Virus record (IMG/VR): IMGVR_UViG_3300032782_000005
Location: 1-64,000 of that record
Reading direction: 5' to 3' (one strand)
Source: a virus
DNA length: 64,000 nucleotides
The position numbers and the translations under genes were made by a program. Below are positions 33,031-64,000 of this stretch, piece after piece (the first letter of the stretch is position 1; the number at the start of each line of letters is the position of its first letter). The notes under the pieces were generated by a model. The model searched no databases. It was not told the DNA's origin and saw nothing but the letters and a program-made list of their open reading frames with translations.

Positions 33031-33033
33031 GGC

Positions 33034-34478: not shown

Positions 34479-34483
34479 AGAAG

Positions 34484-34528
34484 TATAATAGCTATCGTTA
34501 AATTTCCTACTGGTAAAATTACCAGTAG
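34484..34528 (+). promoter_or_regulatory. Promoter-like box plus perfect palindromic repeat
   Basis: TATAAT at 34484, the small palindrome ATAGCTAT (34488-34495), an 11-bp gap, then the perfect 22-bp palindrome (34507-34528, AA core). The same ATAGCTAT-11 bp-palindrome order is seen at 57868-57912. It fills the gap between a stop codon and the next genes, suggesting an operator-controlled promoter. No clear -35 box is seen. Confidence 0.6.
34507..34528 (+). repeat. 22-bp palindromic repeat, intergenic copy
   Basis: Perfect arms around AA, preceded by AAATTTC. Intergenic, 13 bp before the first ATG downstream. Confidence 0.95.
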
Positions 34529-34563
34529 CCGAGGCCAGTCATGGAAGCCGCCTATAGAATAAT

Positions 34564-34593
34564 GAAGCCGGAGCGCGCGACCGCCCCGGCTTC
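34564..34593 (+). promoter_or_regulatory. Hairpin leader of HNH gene 2
   Basis: GAAGCCGG (34564-34571) and CCGGCTTC (34586-34593) around a 14-nt loop, preceded by TAGAAT (34555). The spacer to the ATG is 30 nt with GACACA, AACC and GGGGG. Same design as the leaders at 6555 and 46411. Confidence 0.65.
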
Positions 34594-34623
34594 CAGACAC
34601 AGCGAACCATGTGGGGGTCCGCC

Positions 34624-35301: not shown

Positions 35302-35353
35302 AAAACCAGTCCGCATCCTGCTCTCGCTGAGAGGAGGGTATGGCTTGGGTTGA
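35291..35353 (+). pseudogene. Displaced N-terminus of the GT9 gene
   Basis: ATG at 35291 gives MTTEKPVRILLSLRGGYGLG then a stop. In GT9 enzymes this strand should run straight into GDVVTFGVILKHL, which is found in another frame just downstream. A near-tandem TTGGG/TTGAGGG duplication (about 35344-35354) adds seven bases and causes the break. It may be a mutation next to the HNH insertion, or an unusual recoding site. Confidence 0.55.
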
Positions 35354-36641
35354 GGGCGATGTCGTGACATTTGGCGTTATCCTGAAACACCTGCGAAAAC
35401 ACCGCCCCAACTGGCTTATCGACGTGGCCGCCCCGCGCGGTTCTCACTCCGCCCTCTTCGGCCTTTGCAACCGCGTCCTCTATCACGGCGAGCCGGAAGG
35501 CAAGTACGACAAGGCGGTGGACCTTGACCTGGAGGACTCCTACGTCCACTTCAAGGACCGTCCCAGCAGCAAGACCGTCTTCAACCTGCGTCTTCAGTTC
35601 GGTCTGGAATACGACCCGGAGTGCGGGGGCTACGAGATCGCTGTTGGGCCAGAGGCGACGGATCGCGCCGAGCGATGGCTGCGGAGCGTCATCAGTCCGA
35701 CGCCCGGCGTGTTCTCGCCGTATCCGGCGGTCGTCCTCCACTACCGCGGTGGCTCCAGCAAGGCTCGCAAGGACCTCGAACACTGGCAGGGCGAGGTTCT
35801 GGTCAACGCCATCCGCCAATCCGGACGCACGCCGATCCTTCTGGACTGGTCCGACTCTCCCATGGACGCCGTGCGCGTCCCCGACAAGGTGTGGGGAGGT
35901 TTCGGAAACGGCGACGCCGAGACGATGGCCGCCCTGATTAGGCTCTCGGAAGCCTTCATTGGCATCGACTCCGGGCCTGGCAAGGTTGCCTCGGCGACGG
36001 ACACGCCAAGCCTGATCGTCTGGACCAAGCATCATCCGGCGCGTTACCACGACCCTGCTCCGAACACCGAACATCTGATCCCGCACGACTGGCGGGGAAT
36101 GCAGCCGATCGAGTGGGACGCCGAACGGGAGAAATTCTTCACGGAGAACTACCGCTTCCGGACATACGCCGGCGAGCACGGTCTTGTGGGCGAGATCATC
36201 CAGTGGCTTCAGAAGACTCTGCGCTGGGAAGGCTGGCTCGACCCCGGCGTGAAGTTCGTGATCCCGGCTCGAATCGAATCGGCGGCGTGGGTGATGGCGA
36301 AGATCAGGAACATCGCCGGGAAGCGCGTCGCCGACTGCATCGTGTCGGCTCAGCCCGGCGACAGCGAGGGCCTGAAGGTTGTGGAGTTTGTGCGAAGCTT
36401 CGGCTTCTTCCGCGACGTGCGAGTTCTTCCCATTGCGGTGCATCAGGGTCCGGAGAAGCCACGGGACACGCGCGGACGCTATCTCTACGTCTCCGACGGT
36501 TTGAGGGACGGCTACCATTACCTCGTGCCGGATACCGTGTCCCAGTTAGGGAAGCCGTTGGCCGACTGGTTGCCGGACGTTCCGGCTGACTTCGAGATGG
36601 TCAAGAGGGCGGAGGAATGGCTGCAATTGACGAATGCTTGA
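35340..36641 (+). CDS. GT9-family glycosyltransferase, 5' end disrupted
   Basis: 433 residues from ATG 35340, though that start has its ribosome site only one base away. The GT9 order is present: GDVVTFGVILKHLRKHRPNW, AVVLHYRGGSSKARKDLEHW, and the donor site MAALIRLSEAFIGIDSGPGKVASAT. The natural N-terminus is encoded at 35291 in another frame. The C-terminal 130 residues (VKFVIPARIESAAWVMAKIRN, RVADCIVSAQPGDSEGLKVVEF) form an extra domain of unknown type. Expression level is uncertain. Confidence 0.65.
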   Translation: MAWVEGDVVTFGVILKHLRKHRPNWLIDVAAPRGSHSALFGLCNRVLYHGEPEGKYDKAVDLDLEDSYVHFKDRPSSKTVFNLRLQFGLEYDPECGGYEIAVGPEATDRAERWLRSVISPTPGVFSPYPAVVLHYRGGSSKARKDLEHWQGEVLVNAIRQSGRTPILLDWSDSPMDAVRVPDKVWGGFGNGDAETMAALIRLSEAFIGIDSGPGKVASATDTPSLIVWTKHHPARYHDPAPNTEHLIPHDWRGMQPIEWDAEREKFFTENYRFRTYAGEHGLVGEIIQWLQKTLRWEGWLDPGVKFVIPARIESAAWVMAKIRNIAGKRVADCIVSAQPGDSEGLKVVEFVRSFGFFRDVRVLPIAVHQGPEKPRDTRGRYLYVSDGLRDGYHYLVPDTVSQLGKPLADWLPDVPADFEMVKRAEEWLQLTNA

Positions 36642-36649
36642 GGCCCATC

Positions 36650-36820
36650 ATGTTCGGGGCCAAATGCTCGCGCTGCCCTTATTGGGTGAATATTTCAGCA
36701 AACGCGACTCATGAAGTGCGAGATTATTTGGTCGATAGCGGCTGGGAAATTCTGACGCAGCCAGTGCAATTGCTCTGTCCATGGTGCGTTGACAAAAAGA
36801 GGGCCAAGGAAAAGCCATGA
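36650..36820 (+). CDS. Small zinc-binding-like protein, 56 aa
   Basis: ATG 36650 follows GAGG at the end of the GT9 gene; ATG 36617 is an alternative. CSRCPYW and CPWCVDKK form two CxxC pairs separated by about 40 residues. ATGA overlap with the HldE-like gene. Function unknown. Confidence 0.55.
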   Translation: MFGAKCSRCPYWVNISANATHEVRDYLVDSGWEILTQPVQLLCPWCVDKKRAKEKP

Positions 36821-38175
36821 CTCCCATCGACCGACTGATCCAGTCCACGCAGGCGACCGAGAAGCGCATCGTCGTCCTCGGCGACTCGATGCGCGACGTT
36901 CATGTCCATGGCGACCTTCTCCCTTCCCAGGACGGCGTGCAGAAATTCGTGGAACGCCGCCGTCTTGAGACTCCCGGCGGCGCAGCGGGGGCGGCGCGGC
37001 AACTTTGCCGGTGGAGCGCGGAGACAATTCTGCTATCGGTCGGTCACTGTGGCGATCCTCCATACCACGAATCATGGAACGCTGTTGACTGGTCGCATTG
37101 CATGATGAGTCGTCGTATGCCCGAAAAGCACCGCTTCCTCGACGACTCCGGGCGCATCCTCTGGAGACACGACAAGGACCACGGCTACGGCGCTGACGCG
37201 AACCTGATGGAGTCGTGGCGGAAGACGATCCTGGAGCGGCTGTACGAGTTGGCCCCGGACGCCGTGCTGATTTCCGATTACGACAAGGGCTTCCTGACGG
37301 AGGCGATGATCCGCGAAGTCATCGGGTGGTGCAATGAGAAGGGCGTCCCGATTGTAGCGGACGCGAAGCGCGAGCCGAAAGTATACGACGGCGCGATCTT
37401 GAAATTCAACCACGACTATTGGCTCAACCACACGACAACAGGTAAGAGCGAAGTGATAACCTTGGGGGCCGAGCCTCCTGGGGTCAATGGCCGGGTGCTT
37501 CCTAAGATGGCCATTGGCGGCATTGTTTGCAAAAATCACGTCGGAGCTGGCGATTGCTTTTCCGCCACGCTCGCACTCGCCCTGGCTCACGGCTTCTCAT
37601 TGGAGGACGCCGCCGCCATCGCCCATTCCGCCGGACGCATTTACGTCCAGCATCTTCACGGTCGTCCGCCATGGCCTTTTGAGATTCGGCGCGACCTAAA
37701 TCCGGTCGGGGGAAAGGTCTTATCAGCGTTCGACCTCGCCGCCTTGTGTAGGGCGGCCCCCGGCCGGATTTGCTGGGCCAACGGGTGCTTTGACCTCCTC
37801 GGCCCACACCACGTCCAGTTCCTCCAGAATGCCCGCAGACAGGGCGATCTCCTGGTGGTCGGGCTGAACGACGACCAGAGCGTGAGGCGGCTTAAAGGGC
37901 CAAAACGCCCCATCATGGCCCTTCCCGAACGGACTGCCATGCTGGCAGCGCTCGATTGCGTGGATTGGGTCGTGCCGTTCTCCGCCGACGCCCCCGTGGA
38001 AGAACTGTCGGCGCTGCGTCCCCATGTGCGCGTCTGCGCCGACATTCCGGATCGCAACGGCGCCGGGGACGAATACGCAGGCGAGGTCAAACTGCTCCCG
38101 ATGGTTCCGCAGGCTTCAACCACGGCGATGGTGGAGAGGATAATCCGGTTGCAGCGAACCCCGTCTCCGGCGTAG
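36817..38175 (+). CDS. hldE-like: HldE-like bifunctional heptose kinase/nucleotidyltransferase
   Basis: 452 residues. Residues 1-300: PfkB kinase (VLGDSMRDVHVHGDLLP, ETPGGAAGAARQL, AVLISDYDKGF, GAGDCFSATLALALA with catalytic Asp). Residues 315-452: nucleotidyltransferase (CWANGCFDLLGPHHVQFLQNA, GLNDDQSVRRLKGPKRPI). HldE makes ADP-heptose precursors for lipopolysaccharide-like sugars. Here the HxGH motif is GPHH, so the first His is lost, and the kinase GGAxN motif also lacks its Asn. The intact HAGH domain in the fusion at 24815 may supply the adenylyl transfer. GmhA, GmhB and HldD are not in the window. Confidence 0.8.
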   Translation: MTPIDRLIQSTQATEKRIVVLGDSMRDVHVHGDLLPSQDGVQKFVERRRLETPGGAAGAARQLCRWSAETILLSVGHCGDPPYHESWNAVDWSHCMMSRRMPEKHRFLDDSGRILWRHDKDHGYGADANLMESWRKTILERLYELAPDAVLISDYDKGFLTEAMIREVIGWCNEKGVPIVADAKREPKVYDGAILKFNHDYWLNHTTTGKSEVITLGAEPPGVNGRVLPKMAIGGIVCKNHVGAGDCFSATLALALAHGFSLEDAAAIAHSAGRIYVQHLHGRPPWPFEIRRDLNPVGGKVLSAFDLAALCRAAPGRICWANGCFDLLGPHHVQFLQNARRQGDLLVVGLNDDQSVRRLKGPKRPIMALPERTAMLAALDCVDWVVPFSADAPVEELSALRPHVRVCADIPDRNGAGDEYAGEVKLLPMVPQASTTAMVERIIRLQRTPSPA

Positions 38176-38178
38176 ACT
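38149..38178 (+). promoter_or_regulatory. Sigma70-like promoter of the lysis region
   Basis: TTGCAG (38149-38154), 18-bp spacer, TAGACT (38173-38178), at the end of the HldE-like gene. A GGAGG ribosome site and a TTG start (38207) follow. It would start the set of membrane proteins that follows. Confidence 0.5.
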
Positions 38179-38206
38179 GATGCTGCATTGCAGATCGGAG
38201 GACGCT

Positions 38207-38596
38207 TTGCTCGCTCAAATACCCGCCCCTCCAACCGATTTTTTCAGCAACTCGATTCTGTTTGTGATCGCTGGCATCTTCATCGCGGATCGTGGGTTGT
38301 CGGTGTTCATTCAACTTCGGGCGCTGATCGGCTCCGGCGACAGCAGGTTGGCGACCAAGGGAGACGTGAAGGAGGCTCGAACTGAAGTAGTGGGCGACCT
38401 GGAGTTGCACAAGCGCGAGGATTCCAAGCATTTTGGCGAGGTCAAGGAGGAGATCAAGGGCGTCAAGGCTGACATCAAGGAAGTGCGAGAGGCAGTGAAC
38501 GAAACGCGGATCAGCACGGCGGAAATCGCGGCGGCATTGCGCGAGCATTTCAACATGACGCCATCACGGGTGGGGAGAAAGGACGGGGCGAAATGA
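38207..38596 (+). CDS. Membrane protein with coiled coil (holin/spanin-like), 129 aa
   Basis: TTG start five bases after GGAGG (an ATG at 38180 would overlap the -10 box). One transmembrane helix, FFSNSILFVIAGIFIADRGL, is followed by a long charged coiled coil (KGDVKEARTEVVGDLELHKREDSKHFGEVKEE and on). First of three membrane proteins in a row. Pinholin or spanin-like roles are possible; no family recognised. Confidence 0.55.
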   Translation: MLAQIPAPPTDFFSNSILFVIAGIFIADRGLSVFIQLRALIGSGDSRLATKGDVKEARTEVVGDLELHKREDSKHFGEVKEEIKGVKADIKEVREAVNETRISTAEIAAALREHFNMTPSRVGRKDGAK

Positions 38597-38898
38597 CGCC
38601 AGTGCGGAACGGTCTGGTGATGGTGGAGCGTCCGCCGACCGCAGAGAAAACACTGTCTCGCTTCGCGCTGTGGGTGCAGATCGTCATTGCCATCCTGTTC
38701 GCTGGGGCGTGGTTGCAATTGGAATTCTTCACGTTGCCGCGACTCGACGCCGCCTCGGCTGAATTGCAACAAGACAAGCAGCACCGGATGGAAATGCAAA
38801 CCGTCCGCGACGGCGAGATCAAGCAGAACGCCGACATCTTGCTCCAACTGGAACAGGAGCGGCGAATCCTCAAAGCCATGCAGGAGACTAAACCGTGA
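38593..38898 (+). CDS. Membrane protein with coiled coil, 101 aa
   Basis: ATGA overlap. N-terminal TM helix LWVQIVIAILFAGAWLQLEFF followed by an amphipathic, Gln/Glu-rich helix (SAELQQDKQHRMEMQTVRDG). Same architecture as the previous protein, so they may act together in lysis or membrane anchoring. Confidence 0.55.
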   Translation: MTPVRNGLVMVERPPTAEKTLSRFALWVQIVIAILFAGAWLQLEFFTLPRLDAASAELQQDKQHRMEMQTVRDGEIKQNADILLQLEQERRILKAMQETKP

Positions 38899-39095
38899 GT
38901 GGAGCCCAGCAAGTTTGGCAGGCGTATGTGGCGCTGGCGGCGGCTCAAAAGACATGGCGGCTGGCGATGCAAGCTTACGCCACGGCTCAGACGCAGCAGA
39001 ACGCGGCGAGCCTGAATGCGGCGGAGCAAGCTGTCGAGGTTGCCGACTCGTACTACCAGGCGGCGCTGAACAACTGGGCCAATGGCGGACATTAA
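38895..39095 (+). CDS. Small Ala/Gln-rich protein, 66 aa
   Basis: GTGA overlap with the preceding gene. Almost pure amphipathic helix rich in Ala and Gln (QAYVALAAAQKTWRLAMQAY, SLNAAEQAVEVADSYYQAAL), like short tail or lysis accessory proteins. No family recognised. Confidence 0.5.
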   Translation: MSGAQQVWQAYVALAAAQKTWRLAMQAYATAQTQQNAASLNAAEQAVEVADSYYQAALNNWANGGH

Positions 39096-39112
39096 CGATA
39101 GGAGCCTGTTCA

Positions 39113-39394
39113 ATGAAGAACGAAACCGCGCAGGAAGTGAACCCCTCATGGCTGCTGGCCGCTATCGTCGCCGTCTGCATCGGCACGCTCATCGTATGCG
39201 TGATCCTCGACGTGACGGGGAACCAGGATCAAGTGCCGGTTGTCATGACCTTCGTAGTCCCCATCGCATCCGGCCTCATCGCGTGGAAGATCGACCTCAA
39301 CCGCCGCATCAGTCAGGCGGGGCAGCAGATCATTGAGAGCAAGGTCAACGGCCAGCGGGAACGGATTGAGGCGCTTGAGAAAAAGGTGAAGTGA
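39113..39394 (+). CDS. Holin-like protein with two TM helices, 93 aa
   Basis: After a short N-terminal cap come SWLLAAIVAVCIGTLIVCVI and VPVVMTFVVPIASGLIAW, two TM segments, then a charged coiled coil ending EALEKKVK. Length and layout match class II holins. It is the best holin candidate in the window because of the two helices and the basic tail. Function inferred from architecture. Confidence 0.6.
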   Translation: MKNETAQEVNPSWLLAAIVAVCIGTLIVCVILDVTGNQDQVPVVMTFVVPIASGLIAWKIDLNRRISQAGQQIIESKVNGQRERIEALEKKVK

Positions 39395-39401
39395 TACACA
39401 C

Positions 39402-39472
39402 GGGGCGGGTGACGGGCCGGCTGGGAGGGGCGACCCGCCGGAGGCGTGAAGAGCGCCGCCCGCCCCACCTTT
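39402..39472 (+). terminator. Structured, terminator-like intergenic region
   Basis: GGGGCGGG (39402-39409) can pair with CCCGCCCC (39459-39466), with inner stems in between, and is followed by ACCTTTTA. The T-run is short, so it is a weak terminator or attenuator. TTTTACGGAGAGCGA that follows is repeated at 39806. Confidence 0.5.
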
Positions 39473-39493
39473 TACGGAGAGCGAGGAAACACA

Positions 39494-39805
39494 ATGCAAC
39501 TGGACGAAGCTAGAGGATTCGCGGCACATGCGTGGTGCGAAGACGCCAACAGCGGCAAGGTCTTAGACGTGGACTTAGCCGAGTCGTTCGCTCATATCCT
39601 GATGACGCGAGTGAACGAGGCAGTGCAGTCGCACAAGATCAGGGAAGCCCGTCGCGTCATGCGGTCGGCGTTGGCTGGGGACGCTGGATTCCGGCAGGGA
39701 TACATCGCCAACGTCGCCATGCTGTTGCACGACCACTATGGCATCACGGACTACGAAAAGCGGAACAAGGCCGCTGAGGAAATTCTCGACCTGATCTTCG
39801 GATGA
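39494..39805 (+). CDS. Hypothetical helical protein, 103 aa
   Basis: ATG eight bases after GCGAGG. Helical throughout (ESFAHILMTRVNEAVQSHK, REARRVMRSALAGDAGFRQG, IANVAMLLHDHYGITDYEK). Leader TTTTACGGAGAGCGA is shared with the next gene. No family recognised. Confidence 0.5.
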   Translation: MQLDEARGFAAHAWCEDANSGKVLDVDLAESFAHILMTRVNEAVQSHKIREARRVMRSALAGDAGFRQGYIANVAMLLHDHYGITDYEKRNKAAEEILDLIFG

Positions 39806-39823
39806 CTTTTTACGGAGAGCGAC

Positions 39824-40072
39824 ATGGGAGTCGCAATACGCCGGCTGAGGAACAAGACGGCCGAGGAGTGCCTGCTGCGGGCCGTCTCTCGGCGTGTGAA
39901 CTATCGACGCTTTATTGCCGCCACGGAGTTGTTGGCGGGGATGCTCTCCAACCCGGAAGTGGTGTCCGCTCGTGCGATGGGCGAGAACCGTGCCGACGCC
40001 GCCCTTGACCGGCTCGCCGATACGGCATGGCGACTGGTGGGGCGGCTGATGGGAAAGGCGGGGGTGATATGA
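39824..40072 (+). CDS. Hypothetical helical protein, 82 aa
   Basis: Uses the same leader as the previous gene (TTTTTACGGAGAGCGA, then ATG). Basic and helical (RRLRNKTAEECLLRAVSRR, FIAATELLAGMLSNPEVV, LVGRLMGKAGVI). Overlaps the next gene by ATGA. Function unknown. Confidence 0.5.
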   Translation: MGVAIRRLRNKTAEECLLRAVSRRVNYRRFIAATELLAGMLSNPEVVSARAMGENRADAALDRLADTAWRLVGRLMGKAGVI

Positions 40073-40218
40073 ACGACCTCTGGACCGTGATGCAGAACAA
40101 CCTCATCGTTCGCGCCGGCCTGCCCAAGGACGTGGCCGAAAAGGAACGGGACAAGCTCCAGGAGGCGGCCGGCAATATTGCCGTGACGTACTGGATCACT
40201 CCTACGGAGAAACCATGA
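40069..40218 (+). CDS. Hypothetical protein, 49 aa
   Basis: ATGA overlaps on both sides, which supports its reality despite its size. Sequence MNDLWTVMQNNLIVRAGLPK, then EKERDKLQEAAGNIAVTYW; a helix-turn-helix-like or scaffold helix is possible. Unknown. Confidence 0.5.
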   Translation: MNDLWTVMQNNLIVRAGLPKDVAEKERDKLQEAAGNIAVTYWITPTEKP

Positions 40219-41618
40219 AGCGACTCCTCTATCTTCTGCCTATTCTGTTCGGCCTCGCCGCCGTGGCATCTATCCCGGCCGCCGATCCGCCGGACGCGCC
40301 GCCGGCGCCGGTTCACCATCCGCGCGGCTACAAACCTCTTCTCGCCGAGCAGGCCAAGGCCCTTCATGACGCCGCCTTCAAACGCCACGGATATCTGATG
40401 GCGTGGTTGGCCAAGCGTGCAACCCCGCCGGCCGTGTTCGACGCCGTCACGCAGGGATGGGTGCAGCCGATCGTGGATCAAGGCCAGTGCGGGGATTGCT
40501 ACGGGGTAAGTGCATCCGACGCGGTGACGGGCAGTTTCATCAAGGCCGGCTGGGGAAAGAACGACGGCAGTTTCAAGCTGAGCGACCAGTACGGCCTCGA
40601 CTGCGGCATGTACGAGGGAGGCTGCAACGGCGGCGACGAGGCCCAGGTGATCGACGCATACAAATCGAAGGGAGGCCCAGCCGAGCACTACGTCGATGCC
40701 AGCGGCAAGGCCGTTTCGGACTATGGCCCTTACACGGCAAACCCCGGCTCGTGCAAGCTAAAGGCCGGTGCGAAACTGTGGCAGGTTCAGGATTGGGGTT
40801 ATGTCGCGGGAGATCAGGGACAGGGGCCGGCGTCGCTGGCGGCGTACAAGGCCGCCCTGATGCAATACGGCCAGCTATCCATCGCCCTCGACGCCTCCAG
40901 TTTCGACAATTACAACAGCGGCGTCATCACGAACCTCGGCAACTCCATCGATCATGCGATTACCTGCGTGGGGTGGGACGATACTAAGCAGGCCCTTCAC
41001 TGCCGCAACAACTGGGGAACGTCGTGGGGCGAGCAAGGCTACTGCTGGATCAGCTACAAGGCAGTTCCGCAGATCGTGGAACCGATCTGGATTCTGGCTC
41101 CGGCCGTGACGCCTCCGCCAGTGCCGCCGCCTCCGGGGCCGACACCACCGCCGACGCCCAGCGGCAACCTCTACACCATGACGACCGATCCGACGACGGG
41201 GGTTATCAGCTTCACGCCGACCACGACGCCGACGCCGGCCGGGAGCGTCACGCTGACGCCGGATCAGGTGAAGCAATTGCAGCAATGGTTGGGTGGGCAG
41301 AACAAGGAGGCGCCTCTGCCGCCGCCTGAGCAGAAGAAGCCTGCCAAGCCGATGCCTCCGCCCGAGCCGCCGGAGTCGTTGGAATGGCGTCGGCCGCGCG
41401 ACCCCAGCATCACCAACGCGGCGGAGTTGTGGAGTCCGACGGCTCTCCGAGGTGAATGGATCACGCATCCCGGTGTGTATCTGCCTCGCCGGGGCGACGG
41501 CTGGGGCGAGGCATCTGAACCTCCCATCCCACCACCCGATAGTCGATGGGACCACAACCATTCGTATGTTTGGCAGACGCCGGGAGGACGCATCCCGGTG
41601 TCGGAGTTGAGACCTTAA
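40215..41618 (+). CDS. Secreted papain-like (C1A) cysteine protease
   Basis: 467 residues. MKRLLYLLPILFGLAAVASIPAA is a signal peptide. The C1A triad is complete: Cys95 in VDQGQCGDCYG, His247 in SIDHAITCVGW, Asn265 in CRNNWGTSWGEQGYCWISY; the oxyanion Gln is in DQGQ. A Pro-rich linker (about 296-315) leads to an extra C-terminal part with PPEQKKPAKP repeats. The protease would act outside the cytoplasm. It follows the holin candidates, so cutting the proteinaceous envelope of a planctomycete host is a reasonable, untested idea. Confidence 0.85.
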   Translation: MKRLLYLLPILFGLAAVASIPAADPPDAPPAPVHHPRGYKPLLAEQAKALHDAAFKRHGYLMAWLAKRATPPAVFDAVTQGWVQPIVDQGQCGDCYGVSASDAVTGSFIKAGWGKNDGSFKLSDQYGLDCGMYEGGCNGGDEAQVIDAYKSKGGPAEHYVDASGKAVSDYGPYTANPGSCKLKAGAKLWQVQDWGYVAGDQGQGPASLAAYKAALMQYGQLSIALDASSFDNYNSGVITNLGNSIDHAITCVGWDDTKQALHCRNNWGTSWGEQGYCWISYKAVPQIVEPIWILAPAVTPPPVPPPPGPTPPPTPSGNLYTMTTDPTTGVISFTPTTTPTPAGSVTLTPDQVKQLQQWLGGQNKEAPLPPPEQKKPAKPMPPPEPPESLEWRRPRDPSITNAAELWSPTALRGEWITHPGVYLPRRGDGWGEASEPPIPPPDSRWDHNHSYVWQTPGGRIPVSELRP

Positions 41619-41623
41619 CGTAT

Positions 41624-41731
41624 TTCGGCGGCTGCGGCCGAATCCGCATCCAGGGAAGCGGCTTCGACTCGCACGGGCAACTGTGCGGGCGGCAGAAAAC
41701 TCGAAGGAAACCTGATCGGCCAGCCGCCGAA
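41624..41731 (+). ncRNA. Candidate structured RNA (long-range 11-bp stem)
   Basis: TTCGGCGGCTG (41624-41634) pairs perfectly with CAGCCGCCGAA (41721-41731). Inside are GAAG/CTTC and CGCAC/GTGCG hairpins. It lies in a 150-bp gap after the protease gene and before a small membrane-associated gene. It matches no RNA family I know; it could also be a mobile-element inverted repeat. Confidence 0.4.
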
Positions 41732-41768
41732 CCTTACACCTTCGCCCCTCTCACGGGAGACCTGTTTC

Positions 41769-41981
41769 ATGAGTCTGCTTCTGAAAATCCTGGCCCTGCT
41801 GTCGCAGCTCCAAAACCTCCAGCTGGTGCAGGACATTGAACAGTGCGTCATCACCAACACGTCGGCCGCCGCGATCTGGGCGTGCATCCTCGGCAAGCTG
41901 AACGGCCATCCAACCGTGACGGCGCACGACATGGCCCACATCGAGGCGGCGAAGACGTTGGCGACTGCGGCGAAGCTGTAA
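41769..41981 (+). CDS. Small Ala/Leu-rich protein, 70 aa
   Basis: Starts MSLLLKILALLSQLQNLQL, a hydrophobic amphipathic helix, and continues Ala-rich (NTSAAAIWACILGKL, AHIEAAKTLATAAKL). Could be membrane-associated. Located between the structured element and a 40-residue membrane protein. Function unknown. Confidence 0.5.
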   Translation: MSLLLKILALLSQLQNLQLVQDIEQCVITNTSAAAIWACILGKLNGHPTVTAHDMAHIEAAKTLATAAKL

Positions 41982-42013
41982 CCGCCGATGTTTGACCACG
42001 AGGAGGGCGTGCC

Positions 42014-45684: not shown

Positions 45685-46395
45685 ATGTCCACGGCCATCG
45701 AGCCGTCCGCAATCACGCCGCTTTCCATCCTCCATGAAGCGATGGAGCGAGGCGTCAGTCCCGACCATCTGGAACGCCTTCTAGACTTGCAGGAGCGGTG
45801 GGAGAAGAACCGCGCCGCCGAGGCGTTCGCCACCGCGATCACCGGCTTTCAAGCCGAGTGCCCGACCGTCTTCAAGTCGCGTCAGGCAGGCAAGGAAGGC
45901 GACAAGATGCGGTACAAGTTCGCCTCTTTTGACGACGTGATGCAGCAGGCGGCGCCGCTCCTCTCGAAGTGGAAGATCGCCGTCTCCTTCCGCACCGAGC
46001 AGGCCCAGGCCGCCCTCAAGGTCATCTGCCGCGTCCGGGTCGGCATCCACTACGAGGATCACGAGTTCACGACGCCCATCCCGGCCATGTCCGTCAACGA
46101 CACGCAGAAGTTCGGGGCGGCCCTGTCCTACGCCAAGCGCTACTGTTTCTGCGCCGCCCTGAACATCGTGACGACCGACCGCGACACGGACGCCGCCGGC
46201 CTGATGGAGATGATCGGCGGCGACGAGATCGCCGTCATCAACGGCCTTCTGGAGAAGCATGGACGCGAGTTGGACGCCTTTCTGGCGTGGGCGAGCAAGG
46301 CGGCCGGCTTCGAGATCGAGTCGCTGGATAAGTTGCCCAAGGCGATTTACGCCAAGGCCGTTGACGTGCTGAGCCGCGCGGCGAGGAGGGCATAA
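45685..46395 (+). CDS. erf-like: ERF-family single-strand annealing protein
   Basis: 236 residues, AGGGAG upstream of the ATG. GFQAECPTVFKSRQAGKEG, YKFASFDDVMQQAAPLLSKW and GAALSYAKRYCFCAALNIVTTDRDTDAA are the conserved segments of ERF recombinases, which anneal single strands during phage recombination and circularisation. It partners with the YqaJ exonuclease at 47029; an HNH gene lies between them. Confident family call. Confidence 0.9.
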   Translation: MSTAIEPSAITPLSILHEAMERGVSPDHLERLLDLQERWEKNRAAEAFATAITGFQAECPTVFKSRQAGKEGDKMRYKFASFDDVMQQAAPLLSKWKIAVSFRTEQAQAALKVICRVRVGIHYEDHEFTTPIPAMSVNDTQKFGAALSYAKRYCFCAALNIVTTDRDTDAAGLMEMIGGDEIAVINGLLEKHGRELDAFLAWASKAAGFEIESLDKLPKAIYAKAVDVLSRAARRA

Positions 46396-58313: not shown

Positions 58314-58505
58314 GTGGCGAAGCGCGACCGTGCGACCAACCTGAAATTGGCGGCCCAGATGCTTGGCAAGAGGGGCGGCAAGAAGGGCGGACCAGCCCGC
58401 GCCAGAATGCTGACACATGACGAAAGAGTCAAGATTGCCTCGGCGGGCGGCCATGCCAAGGCGGCACAGCACGGCGGCAAGAAAAAGGGAGATGCGGACA
58501 AATGA
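58314..58505 (+). CDS. Small basic DNA-binding-like protein, 63 aa
   Basis: GTG start after GGAGG. Very basic with GKRGGKKGGPARARML, DERVKIASAGGHAKA and a KKKGDADK end; two copies of a G-G-K/H-x-A unit also seen in the next protein. Likely binds DNA or RNA, like small nucleoid-associated proteins. No family is certain. Confidence 0.55.
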   Translation: MAKRDRATNLKLAAQMLGKRGGKKGGPARARMLTHDERVKIASAGGHAKAAQHGGKKKGDADK

Positions 58506-58837
58506 CGTTCGACGAGGAGAAGGAAGGCAAGATCGGCCTCAAGATATGGATGGAAAAGGCCGAACGAGAAATCTGCGAGAAGGCGGCGACGCTCGCCGGC
58601 CTTGACCTATGGGAGTGGGCCAAGAGGGAAATGCTGAGCGCAGCGCTGAGAACGTTCAAGCAGCCGGTTCTTTTTCCGGGCTGCGAGCCGGACAAGAACG
58701 CCGCAGCCATCGGCAGCGTGGGCGGCAAGCGCCGGGCCGAGAAGTTGACCGCCGAACAGAGAAGCGAAATCGCGCGGCTGGGCGGAAAGGCGCGGGCTGC
58801 TAAGAACGCTCAAGCAAACGGCAATTTTCCCCAATAG
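58502..58837 (+). CDS. Basic protein with GGK-RA motif, 111 aa
   Basis: ATGA overlap. The N-terminal helix set (GLKIWMEKAEREICEKAATLAG, LWEWAKREMLSAALRTF) resembles arginine-repressor/RHH-like folds. The C-terminal SVGGKRRAEKLTAEQRSEIARLGGKARAA repeats the pattern of the preceding protein. Could bind DNA. Confidence 0.5.
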   Translation: MTFDEEKEGKIGLKIWMEKAEREICEKAATLAGLDLWEWAKREMLSAALRTFKQPVLFPGCEPDKNAAAIGSVGGKRRAEKLTAEQRSEIARLGGKARAAKNAQANGNFPQ

Positions 58838-58847
58838 GAGCGGACCC

Positions 58848-59144
58848 ATGCCCCCCAAAGTCGTCTACCACCTGCCCGCCGCGACGGCCGCCCAACTCCG
58901 CGCCCTCGCTGAGCGCTGGGGCCAAGTGAGCGCCGGCGCCGTCATCTGCAACCTTGCCGCGGAAGCATGCGCGAGAGAAGGGATAGACCTTCCCCCTGGT
59001 ATCGTTCACAAGTCCGGGCGTCCCCGTATCCACCCTATCATTCCCCCCGAACTCCGGCGCCGGCCCGGCAGACCGCGCATCCGACCGATTCCGACCGGTC
59101 CTAAGCGCCGTCCAGGGCGCCCGCGCAAACATCCGGCCGCATAG
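58848..59144 (+). CDS. AT-hook protein, 98 aa
   Basis: ATG seven bases after AGGAG. Helical N-terminal half (AAQLRALAERWGQVSAG, LAAEACAREG), then three AT-hook motifs: KSGRPRIHP, RRPGRPRIRP, RRPGRPRKHP. AT-hooks bind the minor groove of A/T-rich DNA, so it may condense phage DNA or recognise A/T-rich promoters such as the element downstream. Confidence 0.75.
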   Translation: MPPKVVYHLPAATAAQLRALAERWGQVSAGAVICNLAAEACAREGIDLPPGIVHKSGRPRIHPIIPPELRRRPGRPRIRPIPTGPKRRPGRPRKHPAA

Positions 59145-59379
59145 GTCGCAGATTGCACCATTTGCCCTAGGACGGCCGATCTGCCTTCAACCCGCCCTAT
59201 CCCCCATCCGCTCGCCCCGTCAGCGTAGGAGCCAATTCCCGCTCTGTTCACTACTTCCACTGTACGCCACGTGAAGAATTGATGAAATCAAGAAAAACGC
59301 GGATTTTCATTGCAACCTTTCGGCCAGTTCGGCGTATATATAGGTGTAGACTCGCCCGCGACACACAAGAGGGACGGTC
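59145..59379 (+). promoter_or_regulatory. A/T-rich control region with promoter
   Basis: 235 bp without a gene. It is A/T-richer than the rest of the window. TTGCAA (59310-59315) and TATATA (59335-59340), 19 bp apart, may be a promoter; TAGACT at 59347 is an alternative -10. A TTGAT/ATCAA repeat (59279-59291) and GAAAA/TTTTC may bind regulators such as the AT-hook protein. It leads into the genes that carry the CTCGCCCG leader. Confidence 0.5.
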
Positions 59380-59559
59380 ATGCAGGCGGAAAGTAAAGAT
59401 CGGGATGCCCGCCCGATCTTCCGTTGGCGTATGTACGTCATCGGGCGCCGCCTTGCATCGGTGACGTGGGCCGCAACGGCGGACGAGGCAAGGCGGCGCT
59501 GCGAAGCGCGCGGCCTAAAAGTGGTCCGCATCGAACCGGCCGGCGGAATGTTGGACTAA
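59380..59559 (+). CDS. Small basic protein, 59 aa
   Basis: ATG after CTCGCCCGC and GAGGGACGGTC. FRWRMYVIGRRLASVTWAA and EARRRCEARGLKVVRIEPAGG are basic and compact. First gene with the repeated leader. No recognised family. Confidence 0.55.
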   Translation: MQAESKDRDARPIFRWRMYVIGRRLASVTWAATADEARRRCEARGLKVVRIEPAGGMLD

Positions 59560-59592
59560 TGAGACTGACTCGCCCGCAAAGGGGAATGACCA

Positions 59593-59787
59593 ATGGCCAA
59601 TGCAACAATCGACCTGGCAACGCCGACGGAGGAAGTCGCACGCAGCGCCTACTTGACGTTGGCGCGACTTTGGCAAGCGGCGCGCGACCGCGCCCATGCG
59701 CGGGGCGAGCACTTGGAAGCGCTCACCTACGCCAATCGCGCCGCCGACGCAGCGTATCACGCTCACACAATTCGCCCGCTGTACTGA
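59593..59787 (+). CDS. Helical protein, 64 aa
   Basis: ATG after CTCGCCCGCAAAGGGGAAT. Helix-rich (STEEVARSAYLTLARLWQAARD, ALTYANRAADAAYHAH). No recognised family. Confidence 0.5.
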   Translation: MANATIDLATPTEEVARSAYLTLARLWQAARDRAHARGEHLEALTYANRAADAAYHAHTIRPLY

Positions 59788-59817
59788 GCACGAGTGGTCG
59801 CCCTGGAGGACTGAGAC

Positions 59818-60381
59818 ATGGCGCAGACGACGGAAAGGGTCATCGGATTGTGGCTGGATTGCGACAGTGGCGATGAGCCGGGCTGGATCGTGTCGGCCGA
59901 CGAAGTGAATGAGGCACTGGAGACGCAGCACACCACCACACTGGCCGTCTACGGCGAGGACGAGGCGGATGAGGCGCGGGCGCATGCCGTGCGGATCGGT
60001 CAAGAGCGCGGGCTGCGCGTGCTGGAGATGTCGGATGCGGCTGGCGGATTCCGCAATCGGGTCATTGACGCGCGGGGAAAAATCATGGCGTTGAAACCTG
60101 GCGAACATTATGGCCTGCCCAATAGGGGCTGGCCGCCTTCCACGGTCTTTCGGGATACGGAGGGCAATTACTGGCTCTCCCGTCTGACAAAAGACCTGCG
60201 CTCCGAGCGACGCGAGCCGCTCACGAAGGAGCAGGCTGAGGCGCTGATAGAGGATGACGGTGACACGCCCTTGCAGCCAGCGATCTGCTGCTATTGCGGC
60301 GGTAAGAATCCGGATGCGCCGGCCACAGGCTCATTCGCATGCTGGTGCTGCGGCCAAACCGTCACAATCGACCCGTCGTGA
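59818..60381 (+). CDS. Zinc-ribbon-ending protein, 187 aa
   Basis: ATG ten bases after GGAGGA. The first 110 residues have strand-helix pieces (TTLAVYGEDEADEARAHAVRIG, VLEMSDAAGG); the C-terminus ICCYCGGKNPDAPATGSFACWCCGQTV is a zinc ribbon. Its leader box is degenerate. Function unknown. Confidence 0.55.
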   Translation: MAQTTERVIGLWLDCDSGDEPGWIVSADEVNEALETQHTTTLAVYGEDEADEARAHAVRIGQERGLRVLEMSDAAGGFRNRVIDARGKIMALKPGEHYGLPNRGWPPSTVFRDTEGNYWLSRLTKDLRSERREPLTKEQAEALIEDDGDTPLQPAICCYCGGKNPDAPATGSFACWCCGQTVTIDPS

Positions 60382-60394
60382 CCGACCACAGCAA

Positions 60395-60464
60395 GCGGCG
60401 CCCCGGACGTTCCGGGCGCCGCAAATGAAACGACCGGAGCGCCGCTTACGACGGCGCTCCGGTC
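60395..60464 (+). other. Two strong hairpins between genes
   Basis: Hairpin 1 (60395-60422): GCGGCGCC paired with GGCGCCGC, with an extra inner CCGG/CCGG-type stem. Hairpin 2: GACCGGAGCGCCG (60432-60444) pairs perfectly with CGGCGCTCCGGTC (60452-60464), loop 7. No T-run follows either. They may cap mRNA ends, stop ribosome read-through or mark a processing site. Confidence 0.7.
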
Positions 60465-60486
60465 TGAACAGCAAAGGAGTCAGCAC

Positions 60487-60711
60487 ATGCAAGCTATCCT
60501 ATCTGCCGCGCCCTGGATACCCCCGATTCTCCTTTCCGCCGGCGCCGCCCTCATGATCGGCCTGGCAATCGCCGCGGATCGTTGCGCCGCTGCCCTGTCC
60601 CGCAAGTGGGATGCGCGGCCCCAGTGGCGCGCCGAACAGCTCGCCCGAACTCGCCCCGGATGGACGCCGGCCTTTCCGCCCCCTCCGTCCAATCCCTTCC
60701 CCTGTCCCTGA
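60487..60711 (+). CDS. Small membrane protein, 74 aa
   Basis: ATG after AAAGGAGTCAGCAC. A TM helix IPPILLSAGAALMIGLAIAA is followed by a basic, Pro-rich tail (RPQWRAEQLARTRPGWTPAF). Lacks the CTCGCCCG box. Function unknown. Confidence 0.5.
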   Translation: MQAILSAAPWIPPILLSAGAALMIGLAIAADRCAAALSRKWDARPQWRAEQLARTRPGWTPAFPPPPSNPFPCP

Positions 60712-60742
60712 CCGCGACCTTCGCCCGCAAAGGAGCAAAACC

Positions 60743-61126
60743 ATGGCTGATGCAGACTTCCGGCGGCGCTGGCAATTCTTTCTTGAACATGCCGGATACT
60801 GTACTCCTCCGGGGCGCGCCGCCTGCGCCCTGTCTCTCGCCCGTGCGGAACGGGACGCGGAGTTTCACGAACTGGCGTTTCGCTGGGAAGATGATGCGGA
60901 CGGCTGGAGTGATATTCGATGCGACGAAAAGCGCTGGCCCGGCAAAGGTCCGCGCGAAACGTGCGAGAGTTGCGGATGCTACGATCCGGACGGCGTTTAC
61001 TTGACTGGACTCGGCGGAATATGGGATGCGGACGCCGATTACCGCCGAGTCATCCAGGCTCAACTCGCCCTTGAAGCGCTGGACGAACTGGTTTTCACAA
61101 TTGCCGAAACTGTCCCGCAAATCTGA
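60743..61126 (+). CDS. Cys-containing protein, 127 aa
   Basis: ATG after TTCGCCCGCAAAGGAGCAAAACC. FRRRWQFFLEHAGYCTPPGRAACALSLARAERDAEFHELAF and a CESCGCYDPDGVYLTGLGG zinc-like turn; C-terminal helix. Members with this layout are frequent in phage accessory regions. Function unknown. Confidence 0.55.
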   Translation: MADADFRRRWQFFLEHAGYCTPPGRAACALSLARAERDAEFHELAFRWEDDADGWSDIRCDEKRWPGKGPRETCESCGCYDPDGVYLTGLGGIWDADADYRRVIQAQLALEALDELVFTIAETVPQI

Positions 61127-61156
61127 ACCCCGCTCGCCCGCAAGAGGATGCAGAAC

Positions 61157-61600
61157 ATGCCGCAACACAAACCGTTTCCGTACACTTTGGACCCCGAGCA
61201 AATCCCCACGAAGAAAAACCTGGACATGACACGCGCCGATTATGAAGGCGGCCCGTGCGTGCGTTACTCCTGCCCGGATGCGTGCTGGAAAGAGCACGTG
61301 GACGCATGGGTCCGCGAGAGACGCAAGGGAAACAATACTTCCCCCTGTCCCGAGCCTTACGGCCATTGCATGTTCATTCGCCCCGTCGGCTATGGCATGG
61401 TTCCCTACGGATGCACCGATCCCGCGACAATCCGCGCTGCCTGGGAATCGCACGTCCGCGCCATGCTCTCGGGTGGATGGGACCGCGACGTGAGCAAGGA
61501 GCAACTGGACAAGATCATCAACGCCACGGTTGAAGCGAAAATGAACGGCAAGGACATAGGCGCTGCTCCCTTCATGGCATGCGTCATGGCAACAATCTAG
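61157..61600 (+). CDS. Cys-rich protein, 147 aa
   Basis: ATG nine bases after AAGAGG, within a CTCGCCCGC leader (an ATG overlapping the ribosome site at 61148 is less likely). CVRYSCPDACWKEHVDAWV and CPEPYGHCMF, then GYGMVPYGC, give clustered Cys residues. A SKEQLDKIINATVEAKMNG helix follows. No family is recognised. Confidence 0.5.
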   Translation: MPQHKPFPYTLDPEQIPTKKNLDMTRADYEGGPCVRYSCPDACWKEHVDAWVRERRKGNNTSPCPEPYGHCMFIRPVGYGMVPYGCTDPATIRAAWESHVRAMLSGGWDRDVSKEQLDKIINATVEAKMNGKDIGAAPFMACVMATI

Positions 61601-61676
61601 GCCACGGCGCCGCGGACGGAACGATAACCGGCTTTCGACGGCCGGCGGCGCACTCGCCCGGAAAGGGGAAACGATC

Positions 61677-62006
61677 ATGACGAAACGGGAGTATGCGGCA
61701 TACGTCGAACGGGTGGAATTCTATCTGAAAGGTCTGGAGTTCGTTTCGACCGGACCTTGCCCTGGATGCGAGGAATGCGCCGAATTCTTTCCGGACGGAC
61801 AGGACGGCGAATCGGTCTGCGAGCCGTGGTTTTCATGGTCGCCTTGCGAAATCTGCAATCGACCGCTCGGAGGGAACCGCGAACCATGGCACGGAGTTCT
61901 GGACGGCGAAATCGTTCATGGTTCGTGCTGCGTCGATTGCGTTTACTTCCTCAATTATGGCCAACTGGACGATATGACGATGGATGAAATCGAATCGTCC
62001 AACTAA
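61677..62006 (+). CDS. Zinc-finger-like protein, 109 aa
   Basis: CTCGCCCGG then AAAGGGG before the ATG; a GC-rich hairpin precedes the box. Cys motifs CPGCEECAEFF, CEICNRPLGG and CCVDCVYF give a likely zinc fold. Acidic C-terminus. Unknown function. Confidence 0.55.
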   Translation: MTKREYAAYVERVEFYLKGLEFVSTGPCPGCEECAEFFPDGQDGESVCEPWFSWSPCEICNRPLGGNREPWHGVLDGEIVHGSCCVDCVYFLNYGQLDDMTMDEIESSN

Positions 62007-62029
62007 TCCGCCCTGGCAAAGGAGAAGCG

Positions 62030-62425
62030 ATGATACTTCACCCACCATTCAAGATCGGCTCGCGCTTGCTGCCTTCCTTGGAAGTTGGGGGCGCATGGAT
62101 TTCGTTGGAACACGTCGGATACAGCAACAGCGGGCGCGACGTGTTCCGATGGTACATAGACCTCGCGGACGGAACCGAGTACAGCGCTGCGGACCTACGC
62201 AGCGGCTGCCAAGGATGCACAACGCAAGAGGCTTTCGGGACGTTGCTGGCGTTCCTTGATGCCTACGCCGAAGCGATTGCCTGGAAAGAGCGGACCGGCC
62301 GCGACTCGGAAAACGCGGATATCTTTCCGCCTGGCATGCGGCAGTGGGCGCGCGAGAACGCGGACGAACTCGGGATGCTGCGGTTAGAGATTGAAGAATC
62401 CGGCGCCGTCCTAATGGAGGAATGA
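62030..62425 (+). CDS. Hypothetical protein, 131 aa
   Basis: ATG after AAAGGAGAAGCG; the box here is degenerate (CCGCCCTGGC). Beta strands (GAWISLEHVGYSNSG, VFRWYIDLADGTEYSAADL) then helices (EAFGTLLAFLDAYAEAIAW). Resembles phage proteins of unknown function. ATGA overlap with the following gene. Confidence 0.5.
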   Translation: MILHPPFKIGSRLLPSLEVGGAWISLEHVGYSNSGRDVFRWYIDLADGTEYSAADLRSGCQGCTTQEAFGTLLAFLDAYAEAIAWKERTGRDSENADIFPPGMRQWARENADELGMLRLEIEESGAVLMEE

Positions 62426-62685
62426 CGATGGGCGCCCGCGCGGAAACATCATCAACCTTGGGATATCTGCTTATTCACGCGGACAACTCCCACTACTGGG
62501 ATGGGCAGACTTGGCGCCGGATATCCGGGCGCATCAATGGGGCGGAGTTCTTGGTGCGGACCCCCGTCGATCCGCTCACCAAACTGTATTCCGACCAAAA
62601 GACCGCGACGGCGGCCGCGCTCACCCTGGCCAAGCAACGGGGCGAGCACGCGCGGCCTTGCAGACTGCGTTTTGTGTGTCAGTAA
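62422..62685 (+). CDS. Hypothetical protein, 87 aa
   Basis: ATGA overlap, so it needs no leader of its own. GYLLIHADNSHYWDGQTWRRIS, then VRTPVDPLTKLYSDQKTATAA. Mixed secondary structure. No family recognised. Confidence 0.45.
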   Translation: MTMGARAETSSTLGYLLIHADNSHYWDGQTWRRISGRINGAEFLVRTPVDPLTKLYSDQKTATAAALTLAKQRGEHARPCRLRFVCQ

Positions 62686-62710
62686 CTCGCCCGCAAAGGA
62701 GCAAAGACCA

Positions 62711-63229
62711 ATGGCCGAAACAACCGCCTACGCTGCCGCAATCGCGGGAATCGCGCCCGACTTGTCCTACTCCGCCGAGTTCGTTCCGTGGAAACTGTCC
62801 CGGAACGCCGGAGAGAAATCGCCGTCCTTGAACTGGAAAATCACCCTGAAAACCCCGCGCGGTTCGCTCACAACGGACTACATGCAAGGAATTGGGCATT
62901 TGCCCGGATACAAGCATGGCCCCAAAAGCATCATGCAAGACGAACTGGAGCGCGTCGCCGCAGACTCGGGAAAGCTTCCGGGGCGCGGCGTGTTTGCCAA
63001 ACCGCTCGCCGCGCCCGCCCTGGCCGACGTGCTCCATTCGCTGCTCCTTGACGCCGAAGCGCTGGACTCCGCGACCTTTGAAGATTGGGCATGCGATCTC
63101 GGGTATGACACCGATTCCCGCAAGGCGGAATCCATCTATCGCGCGTGCCTTGCAATCGGCTTGAAACTGCGTCGGATGCTTGGCGACGAAACGATAGCAG
63201 CGCTCCGTGAAGCGCTGCGCGACCTGTAA
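62711..63229 (+). CDS. Phage protein, 172 aa
   Basis: Best copy of the CTCGCCCGCAAAGGAGCAAAG leader. SPSLNWKITLKTPRGSLTTDY then MQGIGHLPGY and an ATFEDWACDLGYDTDSRKAES helix pattern are found in a widely distributed phage accessory family without known function. C-terminal helix LRRMLGDETIAALREAL. Confidence 0.6.
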   Translation: MAETTAYAAAIAGIAPDLSYSAEFVPWKLSRNAGEKSPSLNWKITLKTPRGSLTTDYMQGIGHLPGYKHGPKSIMQDELERVAADSGKLPGRGVFAKPLAAPALADVLHSLLLDAEALDSATFEDWACDLGYDTDSRKAESIYRACLAIGLKLRRMLGDETIAALREALRDL

Positions 63230-63262
63230 CCCATCCCCCCTTCGCCCGGAGGTAAACGAACG

Positions 63263-63547
63263 ATGGCACACCGAACCTTCCCGACTCTGAAAGTCATCGG
63301 CTGCGACATATTCGACGATGACGCAAATCCAATTGCGCACATCGACCCACAAGAGGAGCAACCCTCTCAGACCGTTGCGGCCTATGCCAGACTATTCAGC
63401 GCCGCCCCGGAACTCCTCGCAGCGCTGCAAGCGCTGGCCAATGCGTGCCACGAAGCGCGAAAGCATCTCATTCTGGATGATGACAAGAAAACAGTGGAGG
63501 CGCTGAAGTCAGCCCGCGCCGCAATCCGCAAGGCGACAGGAGAGTAA
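63263..63547 (+). CDS. Helical protein, 94 aa
   Basis: Starts after TTCGCCCGGAGG. FPTLKVIGCDIFDDDANPIAHI (strands) then a long helix (YARLFSAAPELLAALQALANACHEARKHL) and ARAAIRKATGE. Related to small phage proteins with this coiled-coil type; function unknown. Confidence 0.55.
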   Translation: MAHRTFPTLKVIGCDIFDDDANPIAHIDPQEEQPSQTVAAYARLFSAAPELLAALQALANACHEARKHLILDDDKKTVEALKSARAAIRKATGE

Positions 63548-63607
63548 CCCACAATCGCCGCACGGACCGCAACGCGCGGCCAGCTCGCCCGCACAAAGGA
63601 GCAAGCA

Positions 63608-63856
63608 ATGCGAAGGTACACAACGGTCGGGAATGTTCGCGGTTCATGCGGCCATCACCACCAGACCATCGAGAGCGCCGTGCGCTGCATGCAGCGCGAT
63701 CAGGCGGATTGTAAACGTCAAGGCGGTTATTCCGATCGCAATCTAATCGCCTTGGAGGACGGCCGGCGCGTCCCCTTGAAAGAGGCGGAATATCTGTATT
63801 CCGTCTCGGATGAATGCGACCGAAGAATCCATTCTCACAGACGCCGCCGCACCTAA
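63608..63856 (+). CDS. Basic Cys/His-containing protein, 82 aa
   Basis: CTCGCCCGCACAAAGGAGCAAGC before the ATG, and a GCCGC/GCGGC hairpin upstream. CGHHHQTIESAVRCMQRDQADCKRQGG and RRIHSHRRRRT suggest nucleic-acid or metal binding. Followed by a terminator-like hairpin. Confidence 0.5.
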   Translation: MRRYTTVGNVRGSCGHHHQTIESAVRCMQRDQADCKRQGGYSDRNLIALEDGRRVPLKEAEYLYSVSDECDRRIHSHRRRRT

Positions 63857-63869
63857 CATGTTCTTGGAG

Positions 63870-63899
63870 CGCCGCACGGAAAGCAAACGTGCGGCGTTT
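63870..63899 (+). terminator. Terminator-like hairpin after the last gene
   Basis: CGCCGCACG (63870-63878) pairs perfectly with CGTGCGGCG (63888-63896) around a 9-nt loop, followed by TTT. The T-run is short. Confidence 0.6.
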
Positions 63900-64000
63900 C
63901 CATGCGCCAACCCGTCCAGGATGCCCTAGAATCGCCGATCGTCGCGCCGGCCGGTCTATCGTGCGTGCGAAGTGAGCGGCCCGTAGGCGCAAAGACCGGA
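63900..64000. other. No gene seen at the right edge
   Basis: About 100 bases after the terminator-like hairpin. A TAGAAT box (63927) could be a promoter for a gene beyond the window; no -35 is clear. Confidence 0.35.

What the first reader, a model, noticed from the sequence alone, without database searches (positions are those of the whole stretch)
59351..63608. CTCGCCCG-AAAGGAG leader in front of eight small genes
The core (C/T)TCGCCCG(C/G) precedes eight genes in the last 4.5 kb, mostly followed by a good ribosome site. Genes are unrelated in sequence, so the motif is selected at RNA or DNA level. It could be a binding site for a phage translational regulator or sRNA, or an mRNA processing site.
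Basis: seen in the sequence. Interest (0 to 1): 0.77.

Follow-up and report, generated by a model that had tools for sequence, protein, structure and literature searches.

The report
Shared start leader in a phage
One stretch of a little-known phage genome puts the same nine-letter DNA box, followed by a ribosome landing site, in front of eight of twelve unrelated small genes, much like the poorly understood "start-associated sequences" of some actinobacterial phages.

Summary
YTCGCCCGS lies 22-29 nt upstream of 8 of 12 starts in the small-gene block 59380-63856, and upstream of 0 of 109 other predicted genes of the 79,484-bp phage record. Dinucleotide shuffles give at most 1 such start. The ninth match, 59771, is the coding end of another gene. 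The eight genes are not paralogues. The box is always on the coding strand, sits 13-16 nt from the ATG in 7 of 8 cases (20 in the first) and abuts an AAAGGAG-type Shine-Dalgarno (SD) sequence. Its flanks are random, and there is no shared RNA fold. The only relative found (TerL 62% identical, syntenic structural genes) lacks both the block genes and the box. A virome-wide scan gave only single hits in 15 other stretches. [quoted passage not shown] It probably acts at translation initiation of one accessory operon. Leader copying during cassette assembly and a DNA-level operator remain open. No cognate RNA or protein was found. Modest interest: a private variant of a known, functionally unresolved kind.

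The parts
59310..59342 (+). possible promoter by eye (TTGCAA, 19-nt spacer, TATATA) ending about 9 nt before the first box
   Evidence: read; AT-rich (60 nt before the first box are 43% GC against 53-70% at the other seven); NOT found by the sigma-70 scan, which allows 16-18 nt spacers
59351..59359 (+). box 1 CTCGCCCGC, 20 nt before ATG 59380
59380..59559 (+). small gene, 59 aa, unknown
   Evidence: no PHROG
59569..59577 (+). box 2 CTCGCCCGC followed by AAAGGGG, 15 nt before ATG 59593
59593..59787 (+). small gene, 64 aa, unknown; its 3' end contains the non-leader match at 59771
59818..60381 (+). gene, 187 aa, no box (only a look-alike GTCGCCCTG at 59797)
60393..60464 (.). two strong adjacent inverted repeats between genes 3 and 4; no T run on + strand
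60487..60711 (+). gene, 74 aa, SD AAAGGAG but no box
60720..60728 (+). box 3 TTCGCCCGC followed by AAAGGAG, 14 nt before ATG 60743
60743..61126 (+). gene, 127 aa, unknown
61133..61141 (+). box 4 CTCGCCCGC followed by AAGAGGA, 15 nt before ATG 61157
61157..61600 (+). gene, 147 aa, unknown
61653..61661 (+). box 5 CTCGCCCGG followed by AAAGGGG, 15 nt before ATG 61677
61677..62006 (+). gene, 109 aa, PHROG 3034 (unknown function)
62030..62425 (+). gene, 131 aa, PHROG 21648; SD AAAGGAG, only a look-alike of the box upstream
62428..62685 (+). gene, 85 aa, starts 2 nt after the previous stop, no box
62686..62694 (+). box 6 CTCGCCCGC followed by AAAGGAG, 16 nt before ATG 62711
62711..63229 (+). gene, 172 aa, PHROG 4273 (unknown function)
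63241..63249 (+). box 7 TTCGCCCGG, its end abutting the SD GGAGG, 13 nt before ATG 63263
63263..63547 (+). gene, 94 aa, PHROG 1273 (unknown function)
63584..63592 (+). box 8 CTCGCCCGC, then ACAAAGGAG, 15 nt before ATG 63608
63608..63856 (+). small gene, 82 aa, unknown

Best explanation
It is a start-associated leader element: a nine-base box fused to an AAAGGAG-type ribosome site, repeated in front of eight unrelated small accessory genes of one co-directional block. Shown: the array, its confinement to this block, fixed strand, near-fixed distance to the start codon, unrelated genes, unconserved flanks and no common RNA fold. Inferred: it acts in the mRNA at translation initiation of the whole block, either as a standby or enhancer contact just upstream of the SD or as the binding site of a phage or host factor, so that the block is translated as one regulon. 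It works like the Start Associated Sequences of Cluster K mycobacteriophages but is not one.
For: 8 of 12 versus 0 of 109 starts and the shuffle test. Box end to ATG is 13-16 nt in 7 of 8. Seven box columns are invariant in 8 of 8 while the 15 columns before the box carry 0.05-0.72 bits, little above what 8 random sequences give (the small-sample comparison is my estimate). All copies are on the coding strand; six of the seven downstream copies sit 0-36 nt behind the previous stop codon and the seventh (box 5) 52 nt, leaving little room for separate promoters. The sigma-70 scan found no promoter in the block. No paralogy. The box cannot extend anti-SD pairing because it lies 5' of the SD, beyond the 16S 3' end (established knowledge). 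Published parallels: Cluster K SAS, Cluster EF SAS/ESAS, Cluster EC and EG repeats upstream of starts (passages of PMC3203893 and PMC7302621). A similar shared leader exists in Mycobacterium phage Rey (ACACGGAGA before 7 of 28 leftward genes).
Against: No expression data. The only relative found has no box (13 listed SD-start rows, 11 distinct starts, 0 boxes) and no orthologue of the block genes, so conservation across genomes, the best sign of function, is missing. Recent copying of one leader could give much of the pattern. The box is GC-rich and often predicted to be paired with varying partners (mean unpaired probability 0.27-0.69 in the eight), which is odd for a ribosome standby site. 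No cognate factor was identified.
Confidence: 0.5

Rival explanations
1. Leader copying or cassette linker: the box+SD is a short homology that was copied from gene to gene, or serves as a recombination seam, as the phage gathered accessory genes; it has no regulatory role of its own.
For: The block is absent from the relative while the structural genes are syntenic, so it is an accessory, exchangeable region. The phage encodes an Erf-like ssDNA annealing protein (window 45685-46395, PHROG 155, E 4e-31). Some copies share up to 27 nt including the ATG (families D1, D2, D6).
Against: Seven columns are invariant while the adjacent upstream columns are random and the SD-ATG spacer has drifted; pure copying followed by drift would not spare just the box. 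No gene+leader cassette was found elsewhere: 0 of 15 single-hit stretches holds an array.
Confidence: 0.25
2. DNA-level site: an operator or a phage-specific promoter element bound at every gene start, controlling transcription.
For: The first copy lies right behind an AT-rich promoter-like stretch. Cluster K ESAS repeats include SigA-like promoters (PMC11373665 passages), and Cluster EG phages carry short inverted repeats 14-22 bp upstream of starts (PMC7302621 passages).
Against: The box is asymmetric. The distance is tied to the start codon rather than to any promoter. The 60 nt before copies 2-8 are 53-70% GC and mostly coding. No sigma-70-like site was found.
Confidence: 0.15
3. Target of an antisense or host small RNA pairing with the C-rich box next to the SD.
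For: A C-rich motif next to the SD would be a good seed target in principle.
Against: The only perfect 7-mer complements on the + strand are 16 sites, 14 inside predicted genes and 2 (44418, 65167) outside without any sRNA sign. No Rfam hit in record 56001-72000. Pairing with E. coli 16S rRNA is no better than shuffled boxes: longest run 8, reached or passed by 242 of 500.
Confidence: 0.05
4. mRNA processing site cutting the polycistron just upstream of each SD.
For: Position between cistrons.
Against: No conserved hairpin (0 predicted pairs). A GC-rich unstructured box is unlike the A/U-rich sites of RNase E (recalled).
Confidence: 0.03

Closest known systems
Start Associated Sequences (SAS) of Cluster K mycobacteriophages (Pope et al. 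2011, PMC3203893)
   Same: Short asymmetric repeat in one orientation just before ATG starts of unrelated non-structural genes, joined to an SD, conserved beyond what the SD needs, function unresolved.
   Different: SAS is GGGATAGGAGCCC at the SD itself, typically 3-7 bp from the start, and conserved across related phages. Here the box lies upstream of the SD (13-16 nt from the ATG in 7 of 8), has another sequence and is private to one record.
SAS/ESAS motifs of Microbacterium Cluster EF phages and the 18-bp repeats of Cluster EC (22-30 bp upstream of starts) (PMC7302621)
   Same: About ten to twelve copies, start-associated; the EC distance matches (box starts 22-29 nt upstream here).
   Different: Different sequences; EC and EG motifs are longer or inverted; hosts are Actinobacteria.
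Shared leader of leftward small genes in Mycobacterium phage Rey (seen here)
   Same: An upstream box (CACACGGAG) fused to AGAAGGGA before unrelated small genes of one arm.
   Different: The extra part is closer to and less separable from the SD; other sequence.
Stoperators of Cluster A mycobacteriophages (recalled; mentioned in PMC3203893 passages)
   Same: Short asymmetric repeats near gene boundaries.
   Different: Repressor-bound DNA sites; here no repressor was identified and position is tied to start codons.

Membership tests
Cluster K Start Associated Sequence (SAS) | 13-bp consensus GGGATAGGAGCCC | tested here: not met
   Leader consensus is CTCGCCCGCAAAGGAG
Cluster K Start Associated Sequence (SAS) | conserved repeat at the ribosome-site position, 3-7 bp from the start codon | tested here: not met
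   The invariant box ends 13-20 nt before ATG, upstream of the SD
Cluster K Start Associated Sequence (SAS) | one orientation, before starts of unrelated non-structural genes | tested here: met
   8 of 8 leader copies on the coding strand; no paralogy
Cluster K Start Associated Sequence (SAS) | conservation beyond what SD pairing needs | tested here: met
   Seven invariant columns outside the SD
Cluster K Start Associated Sequence (SAS) | kept in related phages before orthologous genes | tested here: not met
   Single relative L136: no box in 6.4 kb upstream of TerL, no orthologues of the block; only one relative was available
Cluster K Start Associated Sequence (SAS) | role in translation initiation | not testable with these tools
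   Not shown experimentally for SAS either (PMC3203893, PMC11373665, PMC12699233 passages)
Transcriptional operator/promoter repeat (ESAS- or stoperator-like) | inverted repeat or -35/-10 elements | tested here: not met
   Box asymmetric; no sigma-70-like sites in 58800-64000; other promoter types not covered by the scan
Structured cis-regulatory RNA | shared secondary structure or Rfam family | tested here: not met
   0 pairs in the alignment fold; 0 Rfam hits in record 56001-72000
Duplicated genes | homologous downstream genes | tested here: not met
   all-against-genome blastp, no block pair at E <= 1

The most novel reading that the evidence does not exclude
The box is the recognition site of a phage-encoded translational activator or repressor that switches the whole accessory operon as one translational regulon. 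It would be an RNA-level operon control in a phage outside the Actinobacteria that evolved independently of SAS.
Probability: 0.18. Interest if true: 0.65.

Novelty: new variant of a known kind. Interest (0 to 1): 0.36.

Why it matters
Start-associated repeats in phages have been known since 2011, but their role is unresolved. A compact case with eight copies in 4.5 kb, four box-less genes as internal controls and a box clearly separated from the SD would be a clean reporter system for asking whether such elements act on translation, transcription or only mark copied leaders. It also suggests that the phenomenon arose independently in unrelated phages.

Tried and rejected
Rejected as chance or composition: shuffles and 0 of 109 other starts. 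Rejected as gene duplication: blastp. A tighter scan gave 15 stretches with one match each, and none has an array.

Weak boxes at 59797 and 62010, which I first took for degraded copies, did not reach the top 18 of 122 starts in a position-weight scan and are not counted. The best-scoring non-block start at a fitting distance is 43535 (TTCGCCCCC at -27); 64238 scores slightly higher but at -9.

16S rRNA pairing: no better than shuffles, and only E. coli 16S was available. Antisense candidates: none convincing. Orthologues of block genes: none found for 63263, 61157 or 61677; distant hits for 62711 (best Xanthomonas phage FoX4, 41%; none in viral contigs) and 62030 (Rey, JSwag). The starts that I listed around these hits carry no box (8, 6 and 6 starts). 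TerL searches found one close relative and none in genome contigs. The host could not be identified. A planctomycete (Gemmataceae) host is suggested only by an LERLEDRTTPS-type N-terminus at 948-1871 (recalled motif; Pfam gave nothing).
Full report
What is there. The window is bases 1-64000 of a 79,484-bp virus record. The phage has a terminase large subunit at record 66616-68136 (PHROG 38, E 2e-58), portal- and major-head-like proteins, an Erf-like annealing protein, a helicase and a sliding-clamp-like protein. Between the structural/tail part and the terminase lies a block of twelve small co-directional genes, 59380-63856 (63608 added by hand).

The box. YTCGCCCGS occurs 17 times on both strands of the window against 8.9 expected, so bare abundance means little. 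Position is the signal: 8 of 12 block starts have it within 30 nt upstream, and 0 of 109 other predicted starts have it within 40 nt (Fisher p 5.5e-10; 1000 dinucleotide shuffles of the block gave at most one such start). An unbiased k-mer count over the same starts also ranks TCGCCCG first (8 of 12 versus 0 of 109). AAAGGAG is also over-represented in the block (5 of 12 versus 2 of 109). AAAGGAG-type SDs occur in the relative L136 too, but without the box.

Anatomy. The pattern is [previous stop or promoter]-[Y TCGCCCG S]-[AAAGGRG or similar]-[ATG]. Box end to ATG is 20, 15, 14, 15, 15, 16, 13 and 15 nt. The seven core bases are invariant in all eight; the fifteen bases before the box are near random (0.05-0.72 bits), and the SD-ATG spacer has drifted. 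The first copy stands about 9 nt behind an AT-rich TATATATA stretch with TTGCAA 19 nt before it, a promoter by eye only, since the scanner did not report it. Single-leader folds show no common state (box unpaired 0.27-0.69 in the eight), and the alignment fold gives no pairs. Four genes of the block lack the box: 59818 and 62030 (look-alikes that score no better than background), 60487 (behind two strong inverted repeats) and 62428 (starts 2 nt after the previous stop).

The downstream genes. Within the phage they show no similarity to each other. Four match PHROGs of unknown function (3034, 21648, 4273, 1273). The remote relatives found in FoX4, Rey and JSwag lack the box at all 20 starts that I listed around them (8, 6 and 6).

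Distribution. The only close relative found, L136 (TerL 62%), shares 15 proteins in the same order, running from the end of the record into its start, but none of the block genes and no box in the 6.4 kb upstream of TerL. Across IMG/VR, TCGCCCGSAAAGGRGN{4,10}ATG gives 15 stretches with one match each and none with an array, whereas the block itself holds four such sites (spacings). The array is therefore, as far as seen, private to this record.

How it works. Fixed strand, start-tied distance, adjacency to the SD and one possible promoter in front of the block favour an mRNA element acting at translation initiation. The box lies 5' of the SD, so it cannot lengthen anti-SD pairing; pairing with other parts of E. 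coli 16S is at chance level. It would thus be either a standby/enhancer contact or a factor-binding site; these steps are inference. Pure leader copying by an annealing recombinase explains why leaders are shared, but not why only the box and SD resisted drift. A DNA operator or promoter at each gene is not excluded.

Known parallels. Cluster K SAS repeats (11-19 copies per genome, one orientation, non-structural genes, GGGATAGGAGCCC at the SD, function unknown) are the nearest described kind (passages read). Cluster EF phages carry a similar SAS/ESAS pair, and EC/EG phages carry repeats 14-30 bp upstream of starts (passages). In Adephagia the ESAS contains putative promoters while the role of the SAS stays unknown (passages); a 2025 survey of 188 Cluster K phages also leaves the role open (passages). 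In phage Rey I found a similar shared leader (ACACGGAGA before 7 of 28 leftward genes). The present box differs in sequence, in lying upstream of the SD and in lacking cross-phage conservation, so it is filed as working like SAS, not as a member. Literature searches for this exact box with 'phage' (90 papers, 10 listed, titles and abstract starts only) showed nothing relevant; most subscription papers are not held.

Verdict. A real, non-random, start-associated leader array of a known but unexplained kind, in an accessory block of a poorly known phage. Mechanism inferred, not shown.

Noticed in passing
2046, 12864, 21936, 34509, 43874, 48581, 57893 (window); record 64661, 70238: Palindrome ACTGGTAAAATTACCAGT (at most 2 mismatches) occurs nine times, spread about every 5-13 kb over the record, mostly flanked by CT before and AG after; 0.01 matches with up to 3 mismatches expected by shuffling. 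Some copies lie inside genes and read TGNFTS. A ParB-like gene sits at record 70750-71535, so a partition or regulator site is possible.
   Followed up: partly
L156 (Mycobacterium phage Rey), leftward genes 30428-41983: ACACGGAGA leader fused to AGAAGGGA before 7 of 28 leftward small genes; AGAAGGGA alone before 12 of 28.
   Followed up: partly
L136:900-1045 and 1698-1783: Two intergenic or gene-edge stretches built of the same imperfect 12-nt-period repeats (GCCAACGCC/GTCACC type) before SD-bearing starts, in the region corresponding to the box block.
   Followed up: no
58314-59144: Three consecutive small basic proteins just upstream of the block, by eye KGG-type and with a GRPRK AT-hook-like tail; no Pfam match. 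Possible DNA-binding regulators.
   Followed up: partly
60393-60464: Two strong adjacent inverted repeats between genes 59818 and 60487, terminator-like on the minus strand only.
   Followed up: no
record ends: Synteny with L136 runs from the record's end into its start, so the record looks circularly permuted or nearly complete.
   Followed up: partly
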